DNA from: Prauserella flavalba
GTDB lineage: Bacteria; Actinomycetota; Actinomycetes; Mycobacteriales; Pseudonocardiaceae
Assembly (NCBI RefSeq): GCF_003202235.1
Contig: NZ_MASU01000005.1
Location: forward strand, 620,001-684,000
Direction: 5' to 3'
DNA length: 64,000 nt
Shown here: in pieces, positions 34,301-60,791 of the stretch
How the letters are laid out: each line of letters opens with the position of its first letter
How positions within the stretch are numbered: the stretch's first letter is position 1
The notes under the pieces: model-generated
What the model was told of the DNA's origin: nothing
What the model saw: the letters and a program-made list of their open reading frames with translations, nothing else
Database searches by the model: none
Program-made: the position numbers and the translations under genes

Positions 34301-35695
34301 ATGACTGACACGCTCGATCGCCTCTCCGCCGTCCTCGCCGACGCCGTCATCGAGGACCGCGAGGCCGGGATCTACCGGGCGAACCGCCGGATCTTCACCG
34401 ACGAGGAGATCTTCGAGCTCGAGATGAAGCACATCTTCGAGGGCAACTGGATCTACCTGGCGCATGAGAGCCAGCTCCCCAACCCCGGCGACTACTTCAC
34501 CACCTACATCGGCAGGCAGCCGGTGGTGATCACCCGGGACAAGGACGGCGAGCTGCACTGCCTGATCAACGCCTGTGCCCACCGCGGCGCGATGATCTGC
34601 CGCCGCAAGACCGACAACCGGTCGACGCTCACCTGTCCGTTCCACGGCTGGACGTTCCGCAACGACGGCAAGCTGCTCAAGGTCAAGGACCCCGACGGCG
34701 CAGGCTATCCCGAGTCGTTCAACTCGGGCGGCTCGCACGACCTGACGCGCGTGGCCCGCTTCGAGAGCTACCGCGGCTTCCTCTTCGGCAGCCTTAACCC
34801 GGACGTGCCGCCGCTCGCCGAGCACCTCGGCGACACGACCAAGATCATCGACATGCTGGTGGACCAGTCGCCGGAGGGGCTGGAGGTGCTGCGCGGCTCC
34901 TCGACCTACACCTACGACGGCAACTGGAAGGTGCAGGCCGAGAACGGCGCCGACGGCTACCACGTCACGGCGACCCACTGGAACTACGCGGCCACGACGG
35001 CGCGGCGCGGCACCGGTGCGTCCACGAACGACACCAAGACGCTCGACGCGGGCAGCTGGGGCAAGTCCGGCGGCGGCTACTGGTCGTTCCCCCAGGGCCA
35101 CCTGTGCCTGTGGACGTGGGCGGGCAACCCGCAGGACCGTCCACTGTGGAACAAGATGGACGACCTGAAGCGCGAGTTCGGCGACGCCAAGGGCGAGTTC
35201 ATGGTCAAGGGCTCCCGGAACCTGTGCCTGTACCCGAACGTGTACCTGATGGACCAGTTCTCCACGCAGATCAGGCACTTCCGGCCCATCGCGCCGGACA
35301 AGACCGAGGTCACCATCTACTGCATCGCGCCGAAGGGCGAGAGCCCCGAGGCCCGCGCGTGGCGCATCCGCCAGTACGAGGACTTCTTCAACGCCTCCGG
35401 CATGGCCACCCCGGACGACCTGGAGGAGTTCCGCTCCTGCCAGCTGACCTTCCGCGCGTCGGCCGCCCCGTGGAACGACATGAGCCGCGGCGCCGAACAC
35501 TGGCTGACCGGGCCGGACGAGGTCGCCGAGACGCTCGGCCTGACCGGCGTCATCTCCGCGGGCCAGAAGAACGAGGACGAGGGCCTCTACCCCGTGCAGC
35601 ACGGCTACTGGGCGGAGACCCTGCGCGCGGCGATCGCCCGGGAACGGGCGGAGTCCGGGCAGGACGACCCGCAGCCGACCGCCGCCACCGCCTGA
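34301..35695 (+). CDS. benA: Benzoate 1,2-dioxygenase, large (alpha) subunit
   Basis: A 464-residue Rieske oxygenase alpha subunit. The [2Fe-2S] ligands are C92, H94 (CAHRG), C112 and H115 (CPFHGW). The mononuclear iron site lies around residues 212-226 ([15 protein letters not shown]) with H221 and H226, plus D218 as the bridging Asp. It dihydroxylates benzoate to 1,6-dihydroxy-2,4-cyclohexadiene-1-carboxylate, with electrons from BenC. The relatedness to toluate dioxygenase XylX is close, so the exact substrate range (benzoate, toluates) is not set by sequence alone. GGAGG precedes the ATG. It is first in benA-benB-benCD-benK, 11 bases ahead of benB. Confidence 0.95.
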
Positions 35696-35706: not shown

Positions 35707-36240
35707 ATGACCGTCACCGCCGACACCACCACCGCCGCCAGTGCGACGAAAACCATCACCCAGAACGACATCGAGCAGTTCCTCTACCGCGAGGCGCGCT
35801 ACCTCGACGACCGCGAGTTCGAGAAGTGGCTCGACTGCTACGCCGACGACGTCGTGTACTGGATGCCCTCCTGGGGCGACGACGACCTGCTCACCGAGAA
35901 CCCGCAGACCGACATCTCCCTGATCTACTACCCGAACAAGGGCGGGCTCGAGGACCGGGTGTTCCGGATCCGCACGGAGCGCTCCAGCGCGACGTCGATC
36001 CCGGAGCCGCGCACGAGCCACAACATCAGCAACGTCGAGCTCATCGAGCGCCGCGGTGACCTCGTGGACGTGCGGTTCAACTGGCACACCATGTACTTCC
36101 GGTACAAGACGGTGGACCCCTACTACGGGACCTCGTTCTACACGATCGACTTCTCCGGCGACGCGCCGCTCATCCGCCGCAAGACTGTGGTCCTGAAGAA
36201 CGACTACATCCACCACGTCGTCGACATCTACCACTTCTGA
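35707..36240 (+). CDS. benB: Benzoate 1,2-dioxygenase, small (beta) subunit
   Basis: A 177-residue ring-hydroxylating dioxygenase beta subunit with the NTF2-like fold. IEQFLYREARYLDDREFEKWLDCYADDVVYWMPSW is the family opening, and ISLIYYPNKGGLEDRVFRIRTERSSATSIPEPRTSHNISNVELIERR with the end TVVLKNDYIHHVVDIYHF are typical of BenB/XylY. It forms the alpha3-beta3 hexamer with BenA and has no catalytic residues. ATG 35707 follows GGAG and lies 11 bases after benA. It is followed by the benCD fusion after 76 bases, so the electron-transfer part is supplied from the same transcript. Confidence 0.95.
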   Translation: MTVTADTTTAASATKTITQNDIEQFLYREARYLDDREFEKWLDCYADDVVYWMPSWGDDDLLTENPQTDISLIYYPNKGGLEDRVFRIRTERSSATSIPEPRTSHNISNVELIERRGDLVDVRFNWHTMYFRYKTVDPYYGTSFYTIDFSGDAPLIRRKTVVLKNDYIHHVVDIYHF

Positions 36241-36316: not shown

Positions 36317-38965
36317 ATGACTTACCAGGTCGCACTGTCCTTCGAGGACGGTGTCACCCGCTTCATCACGTGTGCGGAGGGCCAGACGGTCGCCGACGCG
36401 TCGTACCGCCAGCGGATCAACATCCCGCTGGACTGCCGGGACGGCGCGTGCGGCACCTGCAAGGCGCTCTGCGAGTCCGGCACCTACGACGGCGGCGCCT
36501 ACATCGAGGACGCACTGTCCGACGACGAGGCGCGGCGTGGCTACGTGCTGCCGTGCAGCATGAAGCCGACCTCGGACCTGGTGCTGCGGATCGCGAGCAC
36601 GTCGGCGGTCGCCAAGACCGAGGCGGCGACCTACCCCGCGACGCTGACCGCGCTGGACCGGCTCTCGCCCACGACGTTCGCGCTGACCGTGGAGACGCCG
36701 GACCGTGACAAGCTGGCGTTCCTGCCCGGCCAGTACGTCAACATCGAGGTGCCCGGCACCGGCGAGACGCGCTCGTACTCGTTCAGCAACGCACCGGACG
36801 ACAAGTCACTGACGTTCCTGGTGAAGCTCACGCCGGGCGGCGTGATGTCGGACTACCTCACCGAGCGGGCCACCGCGGGCGACGAGCTCAGCTTCACCGG
36901 CCCCAACGGCAGCTTCTTCCTGCGCGAGGCCGACCGGCCCGTGCTGCTGCTCGCCGGTGGCACGGGGCTGGCGCCGATCCTGTCGATCGTGCGCACGCTG
37001 CGGGCCACGGGCTCGACGCGGCCCGCGCACCTGATCTACGGCGTGAGCACCGACGACGACCTGGTGGAGCTGGACACGCTCGCCGAGCTGGCCGCGCAGG
37101 TGGAGGGCTTCACCTGGGACTACTGCGTCGCCGACCCGGGCAGCGCCGCTCCCAACAAGGGCTACGTGACGAGCCTGATCGGCGACGAGCACCTGCACGG
37201 CGGGGACGTCGCCGTGTACCTGTGCGGCCCGCCGCCGATGGTCGAGGCGGTGCGCACGCACTTCACCGAGCGGGGCGTGGAGCCGACCGGGTTCTACTAC
37301 GAGAAGTTCGCGCTCTCCAACGCCGCCGCGCAGGCCGGGCCCGCGGTGGTGGAGACGCCGCCCGAGCCGGAGCCCGTCGTGGAACCCGCACCCGAACCCG
37401 AGCCGGTGCGCCCGGTGACGCTCGAGGGCGAGGGCAGGACGATGGCCGGGCAGCGGATCTTCGAGCCCGCCGCGCTGAGCCCGCTGCTCGCGGGCGCCGC
37501 GCGCACGGCCGCCGAGGAGGCCGCCACGGCGAGGACCGTGGCGGGGCAGGCGATCTGGCCCGGCGACGGCGCGGGCACCCACGCCCTCGCGCCCGGCGAG
37601 GCGCCGCTGCCCGCCGGCAACGCCCGTGCGGTCGCGGGCCAGGAAATGCTGCCCCCGGCCGACGACCTCGCGCCGCTCGTGGCGCCGGCCGAGCCGGAGG
37701 GCCGCTACGAGATCGGCGAGGAACACCCGTCGGTGCACGAGTCCGACGCCGTGTTCGAGGCACGGCGGGCACTGGAGCTCGGCGCGCTGGAACTCGTGAT
37801 CGGCAGGCTCACCTCGCAGCAGCTCGCGGGCTACCGGCTGCTGGCCGAGGCGACCGTGCCCTATGTGGACGGTGACCGCTTCGTCGACGCCGCCGCCTTC
37901 ACCGAGACCAACGCGGCCTTCCACGACTACCTGTTCACCCTCACCGGCAACGAGCACCTGCTCCAGGCCTACCGCGCGCTGGGCGTGCAGGGGCACATGG
38001 AGGAGACGCTGCGGGACGCGACGTGGTGCCATCCCCGGTGCACGCAGGACCACCTCGACATCGTCACCGCGTTCGAGGCGGGGGATCGCGCGACGGCCCG
38101 CAGGCTGGTGGTGGAGCACGCCGAGCGCGCGAAGGCCACCACCCGCAGGGCGATGGACGACGCGCGGTCGTCGCGGGCGCCCGCCTTCGTGAGCCCTGGC
38201 CGCTTCGACGGCAAGGTCGTGGTGGTCACCGGTGCCGCGCAGGGCATCGGCGAACGCGTGGCCAGGCGGATCAGCGCCGAGGGCGGCACGGTGGTGCTCG
38301 CCGACCGGGCCGACCTCGTCACCGCGCTGGCCGACGAGCTGACCGGCGAGGCGCTGCCGGTGCTCGCCGACCTGGAGACGTGGGAGGGCGCACAGGCGGT
38401 GGCCGACGCCGCGCTCGCGCGCTACGGCCGGATCGACGTGCTCGTCAACAACGTCGGCGGCGCGATCTGGTTCAAGCCGTTCACCGAGTTCACCCCCGCC
38501 GAGATCGAGGCGGAGATCCGGCGCTCGCTGATGACCACCCTGTTCTCCTGCCGCGCCGCGCTGCCGTCGATGACGGAGCGGGGCCGCGGCGTGATCGTCA
38601 ACGTATCGTCCGCGGCGACGCGCGGCATCCACCGGATCCCGTACTCGGCGGCCAAGGGCGGCATCAACGCCATCACCGCCTCCCTCGCGTTCGAATGCGC
38701 CGACGCCGGAATCCGGGTGGTCGCCACCGCGCCGGGTGGCACCGAGGCGCCCCCGCGCCGCATCTCCCGGGGCGGCTCGGCGCTGGAGACCGAGCAGGAG
38801 CAGACCTGGTTCCAGGCGCACATCGACCAGACCGTGAGCACCTCGCTGATGAAGCGCTACGGCACGCTCGACGAGCAGGCCGCGGCGATCGCCTTCCTCG
38901 CCTCCGACGAGGCGTCCTACATCACCGGCACCGTGCTGCCGGTCGCGGGCGGCGACCTCGGCTGA
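36317..38965 (+). CDS. BenC-FCD-BenD fusion: dioxygenase reductase, FCD ligand domain, cis-diol dehydrogenase
   Basis: One 882-residue chain carries three recognisable units. Residues 1-95 are a [2Fe-2S] ferredoxin (C40, C45, C48, C80); 100-335 are the FAD/NADH reductase (RSYSFS 152-157, GGTGLAP 214-220, CGPPPM 303-308), together BenC. Residues 345-470 form a Pro/Glu/Ala linker with three RxxAGQ repeats. Residues 472-615 match the FCD domain of GntR regulators, with no winged helix. Residues 626-882 are a short-chain dehydrogenase (TGAAQGIG 638-645, NN-VGG 711-715, S764, Y776, K780), the BenD step that makes catechol. No stop or frame change separates the parts. A GGGAGGGG lies before ATG 36317. 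Confidence 0.92.
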   Translation: MTYQVALSFEDGVTRFITCAEGQTVADASYRQRINIPLDCRDGACGTCKALCESGTYDGGAYIEDALSDDEARRGYVLPCSMKPTSDLVLRIASTSAVAKTEAATYPATLTALDRLSPTTFALTVETPDRDKLAFLPGQYVNIEVPGTGETRSYSFSNAPDDKSLTFLVKLTPGGVMSDYLTERATAGDELSFTGPNGSFFLREADRPVLLLAGGTGLAPILSIVRTLRATGSTRPAHLIYGVSTDDDLVELDTLAELAAQVEGFTWDYCVADPGSAAPNKGYVTSLIGDEHLHGGDVAVYLCGPPPMVEAVRTHFTERGVEPTGFYYEKFALSNAAAQAGPAVVETPPEPEPVVEPAPEPEPVRPVTLEGEGRTMAGQRIFEPAALSPLLAGAARTAAEEAATARTVAGQAIWPGDGAGTHALAPGEAPLPAGNARAVAGQEMLPPADDLAPLVAPAEPEGRYEIGEEHPSVHESDAVFEARRALELGALELVIGRLTSQQLAGYRLLAEATVPYVDGDRFVDAAAFTETNAAFHDYLFTLTGNEHLLQAYRALGVQGHMEETLRDATWCHPRCTQDHLDIVTAFEAGDRATARRLVVEHAERAKATTRRAMDDARSSRAPAFVSPGRFDGKVVVVTGAAQGIGERVARRISAEGGTVVLADRADLVTALADELTGEALPVLADLETWEGAQAVADAALARYGRIDVLVNNVGGAIWFKPFTEFTPAEIEAEIRRSLMTTLFSCRAALPSMTERGRGVIVNVSSAATRGIHRIPYSAAKGGINAITASLAFECADAGIRVVATAPGGTEAPPRRISRGGSALETEQEQTWFQAHIDQTVSTSLMKRYGTLDEQAAAIAFLASDEASYITGTVLPVAGGDLG

Positions 38966-39068: not shown

Positions 39069-40409
39069 ATGTCCGAAACCGACGCAATGACGCGCCGGCG
39101 CCAGCGCACCGTGTCCTGGGTGGTCGCACTGTCGACCATCGCACTCGTATTCGACGGGTACGACCTCGTCGTGTACGGCACCGTGCTGCCCACCCTGCTC
39201 GCCGACCCCACGCAGCTCGGGGCGATCACGCCCGGCCAGGCGGGCGCGCTCGGCAGCTACGCACTCGTCGGTGTCCTCGTGGGGGCACTGGCCGCGGGCA
39301 GCCTCGGCGACTGGATCGGGCGCCGCAGGATCATGCTGATCAACCTCGCCTGGTTCTCGATCGGGATGGGCGCGACCGCGCTGACCCAGAACGTCACCGC
39401 CTTCGGCGTCGGCCGGTTCCTCACCGGCATCGGCGTGGGCGCACTGGTGGCCACGGTCGGCGCGCTCGTGGCCGAGTTCGCCCCGCCGGGGCGGCGGAAC
39501 CGGCTCAACGCGATCGTCTACAGTGGAGTGCCCGCCGGTGGCGTGCTGGCCGCGCTGCTCGCTCTCGTCCTCGCCGACGCGGTCGGCTGGCGCGGGCTGT
39601 TCTGGATCGGCGCGCTGCCGATCGTGCTGGTGCTCCCGCTGGCCGTGGTGAAGCTCCCGGAGTCGCCGAAGTGGCTGGCCTCGCGGGGCCGCGCCGAGCA
39701 GGCGAGGGTGCTCGCCGAGCGCACCGGCATCGCCCTGTCCGCCGAGCCCGAGGCGCCGGCCGGGACCACCCGCGTGGGCTTCCCGGCGCTGGCCACCAGG
39801 TCGCTGGCGTGGCCGACACTGCTGCTGGGCACGATGAGCTTCGCCGGGCTGCTGCTCACCTACGGCCTCAACACCTGGCTGCCGCAGATCATGGCCGACA
39901 ACGGCTACGGCAAAAGCTACTCCCTGACCTTCCTGCTGGTGCTCAACCTCGGCGCGATCGTCGGCGGGCTGTTCGCGTCGCTGTGGGCGGACCGGGCCGG
40001 CGCCAAGCGCGTCGTCGCCACCACGTTCGTCCTCGCCGCCTGCACGCTCGCACTGCTGCCGCTGCGCCTCCCGCTGGGCGCCCTGCTGCTGGCGGTCGCC
40101 GTGGCGGGCATCGGCACAATCGGCACACAGGTGCTCGTCTACGGCCTGGTGTCGAACTACTACCCGACCAGGGCGCGCGCGGCCGGTGTCGCCTGGTGCG
40201 CTGGGTTCGGCAGGCTGGGCGGCATCGTCGGCCCCGTGGTCGGTGGCGTGCTCGTCGGCGCGGGACTCGGCGGCACCACGGCGTTCTACCTGTTCGCCGC
40301 CGTCGCGCTCACCGCCGCGGTGGTGACGGCGCTGGTGCCCCGTTCGCAACACGCCGGGGAGGAGCTGCCCGAGGTGGCGCCGACGGCCGGCACCCCCCGT
40401 CCGGCGTAG
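39069..40409 (+). CDS. benK: Benzoate/aromatic acid MFS transporter
   Basis: A 446-residue major facilitator of the AAHS (aromatic acid:H+ symporter) family with 12 predicted helices. The helix 1 motif VFDGYDLVVYG carries the D-G-x-D needed for proton coupling in BenK/PcaK, and the helix 2-3 loop GDWIGRRR is the MFS signature. Helices 7-12 start at about residue 250 (LLLGTMSFAGLLLTYGLNTWLPQIM). It should import benzoate with a proton. The position after the dioxygenase genes supports this substrate. A second, unrelated benzoate transporter (BenE) lies 2.7 kb downstream, so uptake is doubly covered. Confidence 0.9.
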   Translation: MSETDAMTRRRQRTVSWVVALSTIALVFDGYDLVVYGTVLPTLLADPTQLGAITPGQAGALGSYALVGVLVGALAAGSLGDWIGRRRIMLINLAWFSIGMGATALTQNVTAFGVGRFLTGIGVGALVATVGALVAEFAPPGRRNRLNAIVYSGVPAGGVLAALLALVLADAVGWRGLFWIGALPIVLVLPLAVVKLPESPKWLASRGRAEQARVLAERTGIALSAEPEAPAGTTRVGFPALATRSLAWPTLLLGTMSFAGLLLTYGLNTWLPQIMADNGYGKSYSLTFLLVLNLGAIVGGLFASLWADRAGAKRVVATTFVLAACTLALLPLRLPLGALLLAVAVAGIGTIGTQVLVYGLVSNYYPTRARAAGVAWCAGFGRLGGIVGPVVGGVLVGAGLGGTTAFYLFAAVALTAAVVTALVPRSQHAGEELPEVAPTAGTPRPA

Positions 40410-40478: not shown

Positions 40479-43157
40479 GTGGTCCACCCCCGTCCTCCGC
40501 TGATCGCCCGCGACGCCGCGCTCGGCGAACTGGAGCGCCTGCTGCACGGCGCAGCCGAGCAGGGACCGGCGTTCGTGCTGGTCAGCGGCAGGTCGGGCGT
40601 CGGAAGGACCACGCTCGCCGACGCACTGGCGGCCCGTCACGACGGGCCGCTGCTGCGTGCCACGGGCGCGGAGTGGGAACGGGACCGGGCCTCTGGCGTC
40701 GTGAGCCAGCTGCTCGGCGAGGCCGGTCCCGCCGACGTCGCCGAGGTGTCGTGCGCGCTCGCCCGGCACGTCGGCGCACTGGGCGGCACCGTGCTCGCCA
40801 TCGTGGACGACGCGCACTGGGCCGACCAGCCGTCGCTGCAGGCACTGGCCTCCGCGGTGCGGCACCACCGGGACACGCGGCTGTTCGTGCTCGCCACCGC
40901 CGTCACCGGCGATCCTGGTGTCCCCGCGCCCGCGGTCGAGCTGCTGCACCGGGTCGCGGACCACGCGATCGCGGTCGAGCCGTTCACCGCGCCCGAGGTG
41001 GGGGAACTCGCCGCCGCGCACGGCGTCCTGCTGCACCCGTCGATGGCGGAACGCCTGTGGCGGCACACGGGAGGCCTCGCGCGGCCGCTGGGGCAGCTGC
41101 TCGCCGAGGTACCGAGGACCACGTGGGCGCGGTTCGACCCGGCACTCCCCGCTCCCGCCGCCGTGGCGGCCACGGTGCGCACGGCGCTCGCCGGGTGCTC
41201 CCAGCAGGCGCGCGGCCTCGCCGAGGCCGCCGCCGTGCTCGGGCCGGGGACCACCGTGCGTGACGCCGCCCAGCTGGCCGGGTTGTCCGGCGACGTGCTG
41301 CCAGCGCTGGACGAGGCGGTCGCCGCGCGGCTGGTGGAGTTCGCCGGACGCGGGCTCACCGAGATCGGCCCGCCGGACCCGATGGTCAGGGCCGCCGTGC
41401 TCGCCGCGATGGGACCAGCCGCGGCCGCCCACGCCCATCGCCGGGCCGCCGACCTCATCGAGGACCCGGTGCGCCGCATGCGGCTGCTGGTCGCCGCCTC
41501 GCCGATGCCGGACCCGGACGTGGCCGACCGGCTCGACGCGCTCGCCGCCGAGCGAGCGGCCGAGGGAGCGTGGGGCGTCGCGGCCTCGCTGCTCAACGAC
41601 GCCAGCAGGCTCACCGAGGACCGCCTCAAGCGCGAGAGCAGACTCACCAGAGCCGTCGACGCCCTGATCGGCGCGGGCGACGCGTTCGCGGCGGCCGCGC
41701 TGGTGCCCGAGGTGGAGAGCCTGCGCGAGACGCCGCTGCGCAACGCCGTGCTGGGCTACCTCGCGATCGTGCGCGGCCGCGCCGCGGAGGCCGAGAACCG
41801 GCTCGGCCGCGCCTGGGACCTCGTGAACACCGAGCGCGAGCCGGACGTCGCCGCGTCGATTTGCCAGCGCTACGTGCTGCACTCGCTGTCCCACCTGCGG
41901 CCGGAGGAACTGGTGTCGTGGGCGGACCGGGCCATCGCGCTGGCGGGCGAGGACGCACCGGCGGGCATCGAGGCGGCCGCGATCCGGGGCCTCGGGCTCG
42001 CCGCCGCGGGCCGGGCTGGCGAGGCGCTCGCCGCGTACGCCGAGCTGGCCGAGCGCGTCCAGCACGGCGCGCAGGCCCAGCGGATCCTGATGGGCAGGGG
42101 CTGGCTCAGCCTCATGGTCGACGCCGTTGACGACGCGAGGGCCGACCTGGAGAGCTCGGTCCCGACGACGTTTCTCGGCGGCTCCACGCGGATCTCGCTG
42201 TGGGCGAGGGCGTGGCTGGCGCGGGCGCAGTTCCTCACGGGGGAGTGGGACGAGTCGCTGCGCACGGTGCGCGAGGCGACGCCGCTGCTCGACCGGGCCG
42301 GGATCGTGCTCGCGGGTCCGCTGCTGCACTGGACGGCCGTGGCCGTGCACGCGCTGCGTGGCGACTGGGACGACGCCGAGCTGGCGCTGCGCCACGCCGA
42401 CGCGGGACCGCAGGACTACGAGATCATGCGCGTGCCGTCGTACCTGGCCCGCGCGCACGTGGCCGAGGCGCGCGCCGACTCGGCGGGGGTGCTGCGGGCG
42501 CTGCGCCCGCTCACGCAGCCCTGGGCGGGCGGTGGCGTCGACCAGCCGGGTCAGTGGCCGTGGGCCGACATGTACGCGCACGCGCTCGTACTGGAGGGCA
42601 GGTACGCCGAGGCGGAGGAGTTCCTCACGCGGCAGGAGGCGCTCGCGGCCGACCGGGGCCCCGGTTCGGCGCGGGCGCGGCTCGGCGCGGCACGGGGGAG
42701 GCTGCTGGGCAGCCAGGGCGAGCTGGACCCGGCGCGCGAGGCGTTCGACGCGGCGCTGCAACTGCTGGAGGACCTGCCGTTGCGCTACGACCGCGCGCGC
42801 GTGAACTTCGCCTACGGCCAGATTCTGCGCAGGGCGGGCAAGCGCCGGGACGCCGACACCGTGCTCACCACCGCGCGCGAGGCGTTCGCGGCGCTGGGCG
42901 CCACGACCTACGTCGCGCGGTGCGACCGCGAGCTGAAGGCGGGCGGGGTGCACCTGCCGAGGACGGAGCGTGGTCTCGGCGAGCTCACGCCGCAGGAGGA
43001 GGCGGTGTCGCAGCTGGTCGCCAGTGGACTGTCCAACCGGGAGGTCGCGGCCGAGCTTTTCCTGTCCACCAAGACGGTGCAGTACCACCTGACGCGGATC
43101 TACGCGAAGCTCGGCATCCGTTCACGGGCCGAGCTGGCCGCGCGCCGTGGGTCATGA
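40479..43157 (+). CDS. LAL-type LuxR-family regulator (BenR-like)
   Basis: An 892-residue large ATP-binding LuxR regulator. The AAA part has VSGRSGVGRTTLADAL (about 35-50), where the Walker A lysine position is Arg, and Walker B LAIVDDAHWAD. The long middle is a repeat-rich helical region (TPR-like). The C-terminal HTH is LTPQEEAVSQLVASGLSNREVAAELFLSTKTVQYHLTRIYAKLGIRSRAELAA. In Corynebacterium glutamicum a LAL protein encoded in the ben cluster activates benzoate genes, and the same order (ben genes, LAL regulator, benK, benE) is echoed here. So control of benABC-D is likely. The start is GTG 40479. Its end overlaps benE by six bases. Confidence 0.88.
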   Translation: MVHPRPPLIARDAALGELERLLHGAAEQGPAFVLVSGRSGVGRTTLADALAARHDGPLLRATGAEWERDRASGVVSQLLGEAGPADVAEVSCALARHVGALGGTVLAIVDDAHWADQPSLQALASAVRHHRDTRLFVLATAVTGDPGVPAPAVELLHRVADHAIAVEPFTAPEVGELAAAHGVLLHPSMAERLWRHTGGLARPLGQLLAEVPRTTWARFDPALPAPAAVAATVRTALAGCSQQARGLAEAAAVLGPGTTVRDAAQLAGLSGDVLPALDEAVAARLVEFAGRGLTEIGPPDPMVRAAVLAAMGPAAAAHAHRRAADLIEDPVRRMRLLVAASPMPDPDVADRLDALAAERAAEGAWGVAASLLNDASRLTEDRLKRESRLTRAVDALIGAGDAFAAAALVPEVESLRETPLRNAVLGYLAIVRGRAAEAENRLGRAWDLVNTEREPDVAASICQRYVLHSLSHLRPEELVSWADRAIALAGEDAPAGIEAAAIRGLGLAAAGRAGEALAAYAELAERVQHGAQAQRILMGRGWLSLMVDAVDDARADLESSVPTTFLGGSTRISLWARAWLARAQFLTGEWDESLRTVREATPLLDRAGIVLAGPLLHWTAVAVHALRGDWDDAELALRHADAGPQDYEIMRVPSYLARAHVAEARADSAGVLRALRPLTQPWAGGGVDQPGQWPWADMYAHALVLEGRYAEAEEFLTRQEALAADRGPGSARARLGAARGRLLGSQGELDPAREAFDAALQLLEDLPLRYDRARVNFAYGQILRRAGKRRDADTVLTTAREAFAALGATTYVARCDRELKAGGVHLPRTERGLGELTPQEEAVSQLVASGLSNREVAAELFLSTKTVQYHLTRIYAKLGIRSRAELAARRGS

Positions 43158-60125: not shown

Positions 60126-60791
60126 TCAGGACCCGGCCGCCGCCTCCCGGAGCAGGCTCAGGCGGATGGCGCGCGCGGTGTTCATGTGGTCGGCGGCGAT
60201 GGTCCGCGCGCGCGTCTCGTCCTTGGCCCGCACGGCGTTCAGCAGTGCCTCGTGCTCGCCGAGCGCCTCGGTCCAGCGGTCGCCGACCGACAGCGTGGAG
60301 CGGGGCGCGTGCACCAGGTGCCCGGTGAGCCGCTCCAGGAGGTCGATCAGCACCGGGTTGTGCGTGGCGTGCCACAGCGCGGCGTGGAACTCGAGGTTGG
60401 TGCGCATGCGCGTGGCGTCGTCGGGCTCGGCCAGCTCGCGGTCGCGCGACAGCAGGCCCTCCAGCGTGAGCAGGTCGGTGGTGCGACGGGCCGAGGCCGC
60501 CTGGCCCGCCGCCTCGGCCTCCAGCAGCACGCGCATGTCGTAGATCTGCACGACCTCCTCGGGGTCGATGCTGCGGACCTCCATGCCGCGGGAGCCCGCG
60601 ACGAGCAGCCGGTCCTGCTCCAGCCGGCGCAGCGCCTCCCGCACCGGGGTGCGGGAGACACCGAACCGGCTCGCGAGCGCGGTTTCCCGCAGCGGGTCGC
60701 CCGGCGAGACGGCGCCGGAGAGAATCTCCGCGCGCAACTGGGCGTACACGGTCTGTGCGTCGGTCCGCCCACCTGTGCCGCTGACTGTCAT
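60126..60791 (-). CDS. GntR-family regulator with FCD domain
   Basis: A 221-residue FadR-type GntR regulator. The winged helix covers residues 12-75 (TVYAQLRAEILSGAVSPGDPLRETALASRFGVSRTPVREALRRLEQDRLL). The FCD domain (residues 85-215) has LLEAEAAGQAA, E-F-H-A-A-L-W-H-A-T-H-N-P, H-E-A-L-L-N-A-V-R-A and H-M as its metal-site pattern; here D is replaced by E or N at one place and H is retained. FCD regulators of this group respond to carboxylic acids and bind TGTATACA-like sites. It is 28 bases downstream of tcuA in the same direction, and ACTGTATACAGT lies at the head of the tcuA unit. Confidence 0.9.
   Translation of the reverse strand: MTVSGTGGRTDAQTVYAQLRAEILSGAVSPGDPLRETALASRFGVSRTPVREALRRLEQDRLLVAGSRGMEVRSIDPEEVVQIYDMRVLLEAEAAGQAASARRTTDLLTLEGLLSRDRELAEPDDATRMRTNLEFHAALWHATHNPVLIDLLERLTGHLVHAPRSTLSVGDRWTEALGEHEALLNAVRAKDETRARTIAADHMNTARAIRLSLLREAAAGS

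What the first reader, a model, noticed from the sequence alone, without database searches (positions are those of the whole stretch)
36317..38965. BenC-FCD-BenD: a trifunctional chain joining an electron-transfer reductase, a GntR-type ligand-binding domain and the next pathway enzyme
The reductase and the dehydrogenase that act before and after the benzoate cis-diol are normally two proteins. Here they are one 882-residue chain, with a complete FCD domain (residues about 472-615) in the middle. FCD domains normally occur in FadR-type repressors and bind carboxylic acids; no winged helix is present, so this one cannot act as a repressor by itself. Possible roles are allosteric sensing of benzoate, the cis-diol acid or muconate by the enzyme, dimer formation, or channelling of the diol. 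The NADH made by the BenD part is the same cofactor that the BenC part consumes, so the fusion could recycle NADH locally. I do not know a described protein with this order.
Basis: partly seen in the sequence, partly recalled or inferred. Interest (0 to 1): 0.88.

Follow-up and report, generated by a model that had tools for sequence, protein, structure and literature searches.

The report
Three-part benzoate enzyme with sensor domain
Many soil actinobacteria, including this one, make two enzymes of benzoate breakdown as one long protein, with a ligand-sensing domain of a gene regulator built in between and a row of short repeated motifs in the flexible link, so the enzyme may sense a pathway compound and adjust its own electron use.

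Summary
Window 36317-38965 is one open frame of 882 residues: BenC reductase (3-332), a Pro/Ala-rich linker, an FCD domain (479-603) and BenD dehydrogenase (629-882). It is no local accident. All 80 loci kept from a scan of bacterial genomes have it, and it is the usual form of BenC in this order (27 of 30 loci). The FCD is the best conserved of the three domains. The Asn-His-His-His that binds zinc in related regulators is identical in 86 of 86 rows.

First, the FCD was on BenC before BenD was joined, and it groups with FCD domains of flavin reductases, apart from the GntR regulators sampled. This favours a ligand-controlled reductase, like the MarR-type switch of A. baumannii HpaC. Second, the linker carries up to four copies of a motif, R-x-[IVL]-A-G-Q-x-[VMIL]-[FLW]-P, about 31 residues apart. 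One copy survives as the BenC tail in four genomes that lost the FCD and split BenD off.

Ligand, gating and motif partner are inferred. One genome paper labels BenC as double-function; I found no description of the FCD's role or the repeats.

The parts
36317..38965 (+). benC-FCD-benD gene, 882 aa plus stop
   Evidence: open frame and translation; homologous full-length frames in 80 of 80 kept loci
36323..37312 (+). BenC reductase part, residues 3-332 (2Fe-2S, FAD, NAD domains)
   Evidence: NCBIfam BenC above cut-off; nearest solved structure 1krh benzoate dioxygenase reductase; C40, C45, C48, C80 identical in 86 of 86 rows
37313..37705 (+). Pro/Ala/Glu-rich linker, residues 333-463
   Evidence: mean pairwise identity 0.30 against 0.73-0.78 in the three domains; low pLDDT
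37436..37462 (+). linker motif copy 1, RTMAGQRIF (374-382)
   Evidence: motif statistics; predicted short hairpin, low confidence
37532..37558 (+). linker motif copy 2, RTVAGQAIW (406-414)
   Evidence: as copy 1
37625..37651 (+). linker motif copy 3, RAVAGQEML (437-445)
   Evidence: as copy 1
37706..37747 (+). conserved stretch YEIGEEHPSVHESD before the FCD (464-477)
   Evidence: mean pairwise identity 0.84 over residues 464-478
37751..38125 (+). FCD domain (479-603); predicted zinc/ligand residues N532, H536, H579, H601; also R483, E487, R497, R507; C571 and C575 only in BenD-fused forms
   Evidence: Pfam, residue counts, comparison with two C-FCD forms, NanR alignment, model and fold search
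38201..38962 (+). BenD cis-diol dehydrogenase part, residues 629-882
   Evidence: NCBIfam BenD above cut-off; S764, S765, Y776 and K780 identical in 86 of 86 rows
34301..35695 (+). benA, benzoate dioxygenase alpha subunit, partner of BenC
   Evidence: named from its translation; a match in the fetched stretch of 80 of 80 loci
35707..36240 (+). benB, beta subunit
   Evidence: named from its translation; 80 of 80 loci
39069..40409 (+). benK-like MFS transporter downstream
   Evidence: named from its translation; matched in 25 of 80 loci
40479..43157 (+). LuxR-type regulator, probable regulator of the operon
   Evidence: named from its translation; matched in 76 of 80 loci

Best explanation
It is the normal BenC and BenD of the actinobacterial benzoate pathway, joined in one chain and given a ligand sensor. 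Shown: BenC, FCD and BenD are complete, conserved and encoded with benAB. The FCD has kept the Asn-His-His-His metal site and has no DNA-binding domain. Shown by tree: this FCD belongs to a lineage carried by reductase components (BenC and flavin reductases), and it sat on BenC before BenD was joined. Inferred: the FCD binds zinc and a pathway acid in cis. Two ligands are likely: benzoate, or the benzoate cis-diol, which is an alpha-hydroxy acid like 2-hydroxyglutarate and sialic acid (bound by DhdR and NanR). Ligand binding changes how fast the BenC part takes electrons from NADH and passes them to BenAB, so that NADH and O2 are not wasted or the diol does not run ahead of BenD. BenD, held beside it, oxidises the diol and returns the NADH that BenC used. 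The flexible linker lets BenC swing to the oxygenase, and its short motifs (up to four) probably dock a partner, most simply BenAB.
For: Domains; catalytic residues identical in 86 of 86 rows; FCD identity 0.78 against 0.73 (BenC) and 0.74 (BenD); N532, H536, H579, H601 in 86 of 86 rows, aligning with NanR D172, H176, H222, H244 (zinc ligands per passages of PMC8012715) and matching in kind the Asn137/His141/His192/His214 site of Atu1419 (passages of PMC7797058); FCD fold; FCD tree with flavin-reductase and BenC FCDs together, 98/94; a flavin reductase-GntR-FCD protein encoded beside an HpaB-type oxygenase; BenC-FCD with separate BenD in two genomes; precedent of HpaC with a MarR domain whose self-inhibition is relieved by 4-HPA (passages of the review PMC10816480); motif: 217 GQ pairs in 84 linkers against 36.9 expected, R four places before the G in 82%; benA and benB in 80 of 80 loci.
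Against: No binding, gating or docking was tested. The FCD can be dispensed with: G008 and the split forms in four genomes lack it, as does the below-cut-off BenC of G876. In the fusion only a short spacer separates FCD from BenD, while BenC is far away on a linker, which fits a BenD-side or assembly role as well. The full-length model gives no trustworthy domain arrangement (pTM 0.48). The sequence profile of the FCD finds no PDB chain at E 0.01 and NanR only at 0.022. One of the four flavin-reductase FCD rows (L191) lacks the [ND]-x-x-[FM]-H pattern. The motif partner is unknown; 7 of 84 linkers have no strict copy, and the two BenC-FCD proteins with separate BenD have none.
Confidence: 0.45

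Rival explanations
1. The FCD is only an assembly module: it dimerises and, with BenD, makes a fixed core from which BenC arms reach the oxygenase; no ligand is sensed.
For: FCD regulators use this domain for dimer and tetramer contacts (passages of PMC7797058); in the fusion the FCD ends close to BenD.
Against: All four metal residues and R483, E487, R497, R507 are identical in 86 of 86 rows, more than a mere interface should need; the FCD was on BenC before BenD was joined.
Confidence: 0.25
2. The FCD captures the cis-diol and hands it to BenD (channelling or protection of an unstable intermediate), without control of BenC.
For: The FCD lies directly before BenD; the diol is an alpha-hydroxy acid (general knowledge), and NanR zinc holds the carboxyl and hydroxyl of its ligand (passages of PMC8012715); DhdR, a close fold match, has a 2-hydroxyglutarate inducer (PDB titles; the abbreviation L2HG read from memory).
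Against: The FCD is also on BenC where BenD is a separate protein (L111, L151); FCD sites are known as sensor pockets, not as carriers (general knowledge).
Confidence: 0.15
3. The FCD and linker repeats are passengers with little effect; the fusion is a chance read-through of neighbouring genes, kept because it does no harm.
For: In L151 the benC-FCD stop overlaps the benD start as ATGA, so joining is easy; the FCD was lost at least once.
Against: The FCD is the best conserved domain; the motif is kept in most linkers (77 of 84 with a strict copy) and in 4 of 4 split forms, while the linker itself is only 0.30 identical.
Confidence: 0.1

Closest known systems
Benzoate 1,2-dioxygenase reductase BenC (1krh) plus benzoate diol dehydrogenase BenD, as separate proteins in Proteobacteria
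   Same: same two enzyme families above curated cut-offs, same gene order: dioxygenase large and small subunit, benC, benD
   Different: here one chain, with an FCD and a repeat-bearing linker between them
BenC of Rhodococcus ruber Chol-4 (PMC6498646, figure-legend passage)
   Same: labelled reductase component / diol dehydrogenase, so the double function is already in print
   Different: no FCD, no linker repeats and no mechanism in the passages seen
A. baumannii HpaC (C1), flavin reductase with a C-terminal MarR domain (passages of the review PMC10816480)
   Same: a regulator-derived domain on a reductase of an aromatic hydroxylase, controlling NADH use on binding the substrate
   Different: MarR instead of FCD, flavin reductase instead of Rieske-type reductase, no dehydrogenase fused
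Flavin reductase-FCD proteins, with or without a detectable GntR wing (L105, L106/L112, L107, L191)
   Same: nearest FCD relatives outside BenC in the tree; L112 lies beside an HpaB-type oxygenase
   Different: different reductase fold; GntR wing still detected in L112; I found no description in the paper searches made (no paper)
FCD regulators NanR, Atu1419 and TM0439 (zinc) and DhdR
   Same: fold and, for NanR and Atu1419, metal residues
   Different: they are DNA-binding regulators; here there is no winged helix

Membership tests
BenC (NF040810) | profile score above the curated cut-off of 430 bits | tested here: met
   490.8 bits, residues 3-332
BenC (NF040810) | 2Fe-2S cysteines and FAD/NAD domains | tested here: met
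   Pfam Fer2, FAD_binding_6, NAD_binding_1; C40, C45, C48, C80 in 86 of 86 rows
BenC (NF040810) | electron transfer from NADH to BenAB | not testable with these tools
   needs enzyme assay
BenD (NF040811) | profile score above the curated cut-off of 380 bits | tested here: met
   413.3 bits, residues 629-882
BenD (NF040811) | SDR glycine motif and Ser/Tyr/Lys catalytic residues | tested here: met
   G639, G643, G645, S764, S765, Y776, K780 in 86 of 86 rows; the roles of these residues, and which Ser is catalytic, are recalled
FCD domain (PF07729) | profile score above the gathering score of 24.3 bits and all-helical FCD fold | tested here: met
FCD domain, metal-binding group | Asn/Asp-x3-His plus two further His | tested here: met
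   N532, H536, H579, H601 in 86 of 86 rows; NanR alignment
FCD domain, metal-binding group | bound metal | not testable with these tools
   needs metal analysis
[quoted passage not shown]
   no GntR match in the protein at E up to 1
Ligand-gated reductase of the HpaC/C1 kind (works like) | regulator-derived domain on a reductase component | tested here: met
   BenC-FCD
Ligand-gated reductase of the HpaC/C1 kind (works like) | substrate binding raises the rate of NADH oxidation | not testable with these tools
   needs kinetics

The most novel reading that the evidence does not exclude
One lineage of zinc-binding FCD sensors left transcription and became a plug-in control domain of NADH-dependent reductases, first on flavin reductases of two-component monooxygenases or on BenC, then within a self-scaffolding benzoate enzyme: BenC arms with tandem hairpin motifs dock the dioxygenase, the FCD reads the cis-diol made by that dioxygenase, and BenD removes the diol and returns the NADH. 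It would be a redox-closed, feedback-controlled Rieske dioxygenase assembly encoded largely in one chain.
Probability: 0.25. Interest if true: 0.85.

Novelty: new variant of a known kind. Interest (0 to 1): 0.62.

Why it matters
Rieske dioxygenases can waste NADH and O2 and release reactive oxygen species when uncoupled (abstract and other passages of PMC9502038 on nitroarene dioxygenases), and they are usually seen as controlled only by gene expression (general knowledge). If the FCD gates BenC, a common soil pathway would have direct metabolite control of its electron supply. It would also show that a repressor's ligand domain can be reused as an enzyme valve in two reductase families. The linker motif is a ready-made candidate for a docking peptide that holds oxygenase, reductase and dehydrogenase together. 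The natural series (separate; BenC-FCD plus BenD; full fusion; split again with the motif kept) makes both ideas directly testable.

Tried and rejected
Sequencing or assembly artefact: rejected, since the same frame is in a same-genus genome at 94% identity and in 80 of 80 kept loci. FCD as repressor: rejected, no winged helix. Motif as a general docking signal of this genome: the DNA pattern for R-x-x-A-G-Q-x-x-[FL] gave 3 places in the 8.1 Mb genome, 2 in this linker (copy 2, with W, cannot match it); the third is in a frame I judge non-coding by eye; the backwards control also gave 3 places. So the pattern is rare and, as far as this test goes, specific to BenC. BenC-like reductase of L008: a different fusion (to an FAD-binding monooxygenase-like part), not related to the FCD story. 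Phage origin: no near match in the phage collection. Foldseek with the full-length model listed only reductase-like and SDR-like chains in the 50 rows shown, so the FCD was modelled alone.

Novelty searches: ten paper searches, in open-access PMC papers only; searches found no paper, and one search was useless because 'bend' and 'benc' match common words. Older subscription papers on Rhodococcus and Corynebacterium ben genes were not available, so 'not described' is limited to these searches. I recall that C. glutamicum BenC is about 512 aa, which would fit BenC-FCD; searches show only that its genome has a BenC above the cut-off.

Rows dropped: '86 of 86 rows' refers to 86 alignment rows (84 distinct sequences) after leaving out L001, which is the window itself. 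Alignment A1 used 68 of 87 rows. The BenC tree used 82 of 115 rows, 33 left out by hand as near-duplicates, and it is a 'quick' tree; of the four split genomes only two (L149, L150) are in it. FCD tree: of 39 non-fusion loci one (L204) gave no hit, 15 scored 10 bits or less and one (L212) was short, all left out, leaving 22; 16 fusions were picked by hand, 38 rows in all. The flavin-reductase FCD rows L105-L107 were found through their likeness to the BenC FCD, which favours their grouping, and L191 through L112; GntR rows found the same way (L108-L110) still fell outside. The order and class samples share genomes. The domain profiles used for the architecture counts were built from the fusions themselves. 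In one search only 15 of the 215 own-genome candidates were scored.

Full report
What is there. The ORF at 36317-38965 (+) codes for 882 residues without a break. Pfam and NCBIfam agree on BenC (residues 3-332), FCD (479-603) and BenD (629-882), all above curated cut-offs. benA (34301-35695) and benB (35707-36240) lie just upstream; a benK-like transporter, a LuxR-type regulator and a BenE-type transporter follow; catR, catB, catA and catC lie on the other strand upstream. These neighbours are named by reading their translations, not by a family search. In a search of the own genome with the whole protein (15 of 215 candidates scored) the next-best BenD-like place is 44% identical and the other BenC-like places 32-37%, so the fusion is apparently the only BenC and BenD of this organism. 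The same-genus genome G002 gives a protein with the same linker as Prauserella endophytica (L021), so the window probably comes from Prauserella (inference).

How common it is. A scan of genome contigs found 120 relatives; the best 80 were kept, and all 80 match nearly the whole chain: Prauserella, Amycolatopsis, Saccharopolyspora, Nocardioides, Mycolicibacterium, Rhodococcus, Gordonia, Williamsia, Kribbella and others, identity 58-93%. In a sample of 298 genomes of the order, 30 have a BenC above cut-off. By domain profiles built here, 27 of the 30 are BenC-linker-FCD-BenD in one frame, 1 (G690) is BenC-FCD with a separate BenD, and 2 (G682, G615) are BenC and BenD separate without FCD. In a sample of 198 genomes of one genus, searched with the split BenC, 25 match at E 1e-110: 22 fused, 3 split without FCD. 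In the class sample, which shares genomes with the order sample, 13 of 394 are above cut-off: 11 fused, 1 BenC-FCD (G067), 1 split. benA and benB are matched in the fetched stretch of 80 of 80 loci, the LuxR-type regulator in 76, catA in 67, benK in 25. The record of a Tsukamurella plasmid names the fused protein simply BenC (all three domains found there).

Order of events. In the BenC tree (82 rows, quick method) all fusions form one clade (99, starred) that also holds the two split forms L149 and L150, which sit among Mycolicibacterium and Mycobacterium fusions (98, starred); their split and loss of the FCD is therefore secondary. The sister rows are two BenC-FCD proteins with separate BenD (L111, L151) and one BenC without FCD (L115); their mutual order has only 87-88 support. 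In L151 the stop of benC-FCD overlaps the start of benD as ATGA, so joining needed little. The FCD tree (38 rows) puts L111, then L151, outside the fused FCDs (99/95 and 98/92), as expected if the FCD came first and BenD was joined later.

A reductase lineage. The nearest FCD relatives outside BenC found in the phylum samples are L105, L106 and L107, proteins with a flavin reductase part (Pfam run on L112, which holds the L106 protein, and on L107; L105 judged by reading). L112 has flavin reductase, GntR wing and FCD, all above cut-off, and lies beside an HpaB-type oxygenase; in L107 the wing is not detected. In the tree all 22 reductase-borne FCDs stand together (98/94), apart from 16 GntR-type rows, 13 of them from this genome; two GntR-type rows (L108, L109) are the next branch outside. 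L191, a Dietzia flavin reductase on a long branch, lacks the [ND]-x-x-[FM]-H pattern. The sampling favours this grouping, as told under Tried and rejected. A known analogue is A. baumannii HpaC, whose C-terminal MarR domain holds the flavin reductase down until 4-hydroxyphenylacetate binds (passages of the review PMC10816480). To my knowledge that domain is not homologous; it shows only that such a switch exists.

The linker. It is 84-251 residues long in 84 distinct sequences, measured to the start of the FCD. A strict motif R-x-[ILV]-[AGV]-[GRA]-Q occurs 165 times, against a mean of 0.4 (at most 2) in composition shuffles and 2 in the rest of the proteins; copies per linker are 0 in 7, 1 in 14, 2 in 39, 3 in 23 and 4 in 1; of 88 gaps between neighbouring copies 72 are 28-41 residues and 16 are 60-77, about two periods. 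Anchoring on GQ alone avoids circular counting: 217 GQ against 36.9 expected; counted from the G, R at -4 in 82% (background 5%), I/V/L at -2 in 94%, A at -1 in 81% and V/M/I/L at +3 in 92%. AlphaFold draws each window copy as a tiny hairpin with an A-G turn, at low confidence. The motif seems specific to BenC in this genome. The split forms in four genomes each end BenC with one copy (RCIAGQLVF in two, RCIVGQLVF, RRIAGQLVF). This argues for a job independent of the FCD, although leftover sequence cannot be ruled out from four related genomes. The two BenC-FCD proteins with separate BenD have none, and two of the 22 fused rows of the genus sample have no strict copy.

Mechanism. Best reading: a redox-closed pair (BenC uses NADH, BenD returns it) with an in-cis acid sensor on the electron supply and flexible, docking-capable arms. 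Shown: architecture, conservation, metal residues, order of gain, motif statistics. Inferred: zinc, ligand, gating, docking partner. Against: the FCD is absent from some operons that look complete, and its close spacing to BenD also fits an assembly or hand-over role.

What is known. The double BenC/BenD function is labelled in the R. ruber Chol-4 genome paper (figure-legend passage of PMC6498646), and 'FCD domain-containing protein' is used for benC in Rhodococcus TG-1 (passages of PMC11858498). A Rhodococcus BUPNP1 table lists benC and benD apart (passages of PMC6328493). In the listings and passages I saw from the ten searches made (listed under Tried and rejected), no paper discusses what the FCD does in BenC, the linker motif or the flavin-reductase kin. 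I therefore call it a new variant of a known kind.

Noticed in passing
L008 (G042), ORF from 1432: A BenC-like reductase (Fer2, FAD, NAD domains) runs on into an FAD-binding monooxygenase-like part in one 857-residue open frame; places of the same weaker BenC class with open frames of 854-937 aa occur in six more genomes of the order sample, whose second part was not checked.
   Followed up: partly
L112:4102-5301 (-) and L112:2610-4058 (-): Flavin reductase-GntR-FCD protein beside an HpaB-type oxygenase: a possible ligand-controlled reductase with the regulator's DNA-binding wing still detectable.
   Followed up: partly
window 60180-60548 (-): Another FCD domain, probably an ordinary GntR regulator; the genome holds 56 FCD stretches in all.
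   Followed up: no
window 37706-37747: YEIGEEHPSVHESD before the FCD is a very conserved stretch (mean identity 0.84), also kept in part in L151, and has no assigned role.
   Followed up: no
window residues 571 and 575 (38027-38041): A W-C-x-P-x-C element next to the metal residue H579, seen in BenD-fused forms but not in L111 or L151; could be a second metal or redox site.
   Followed up: no
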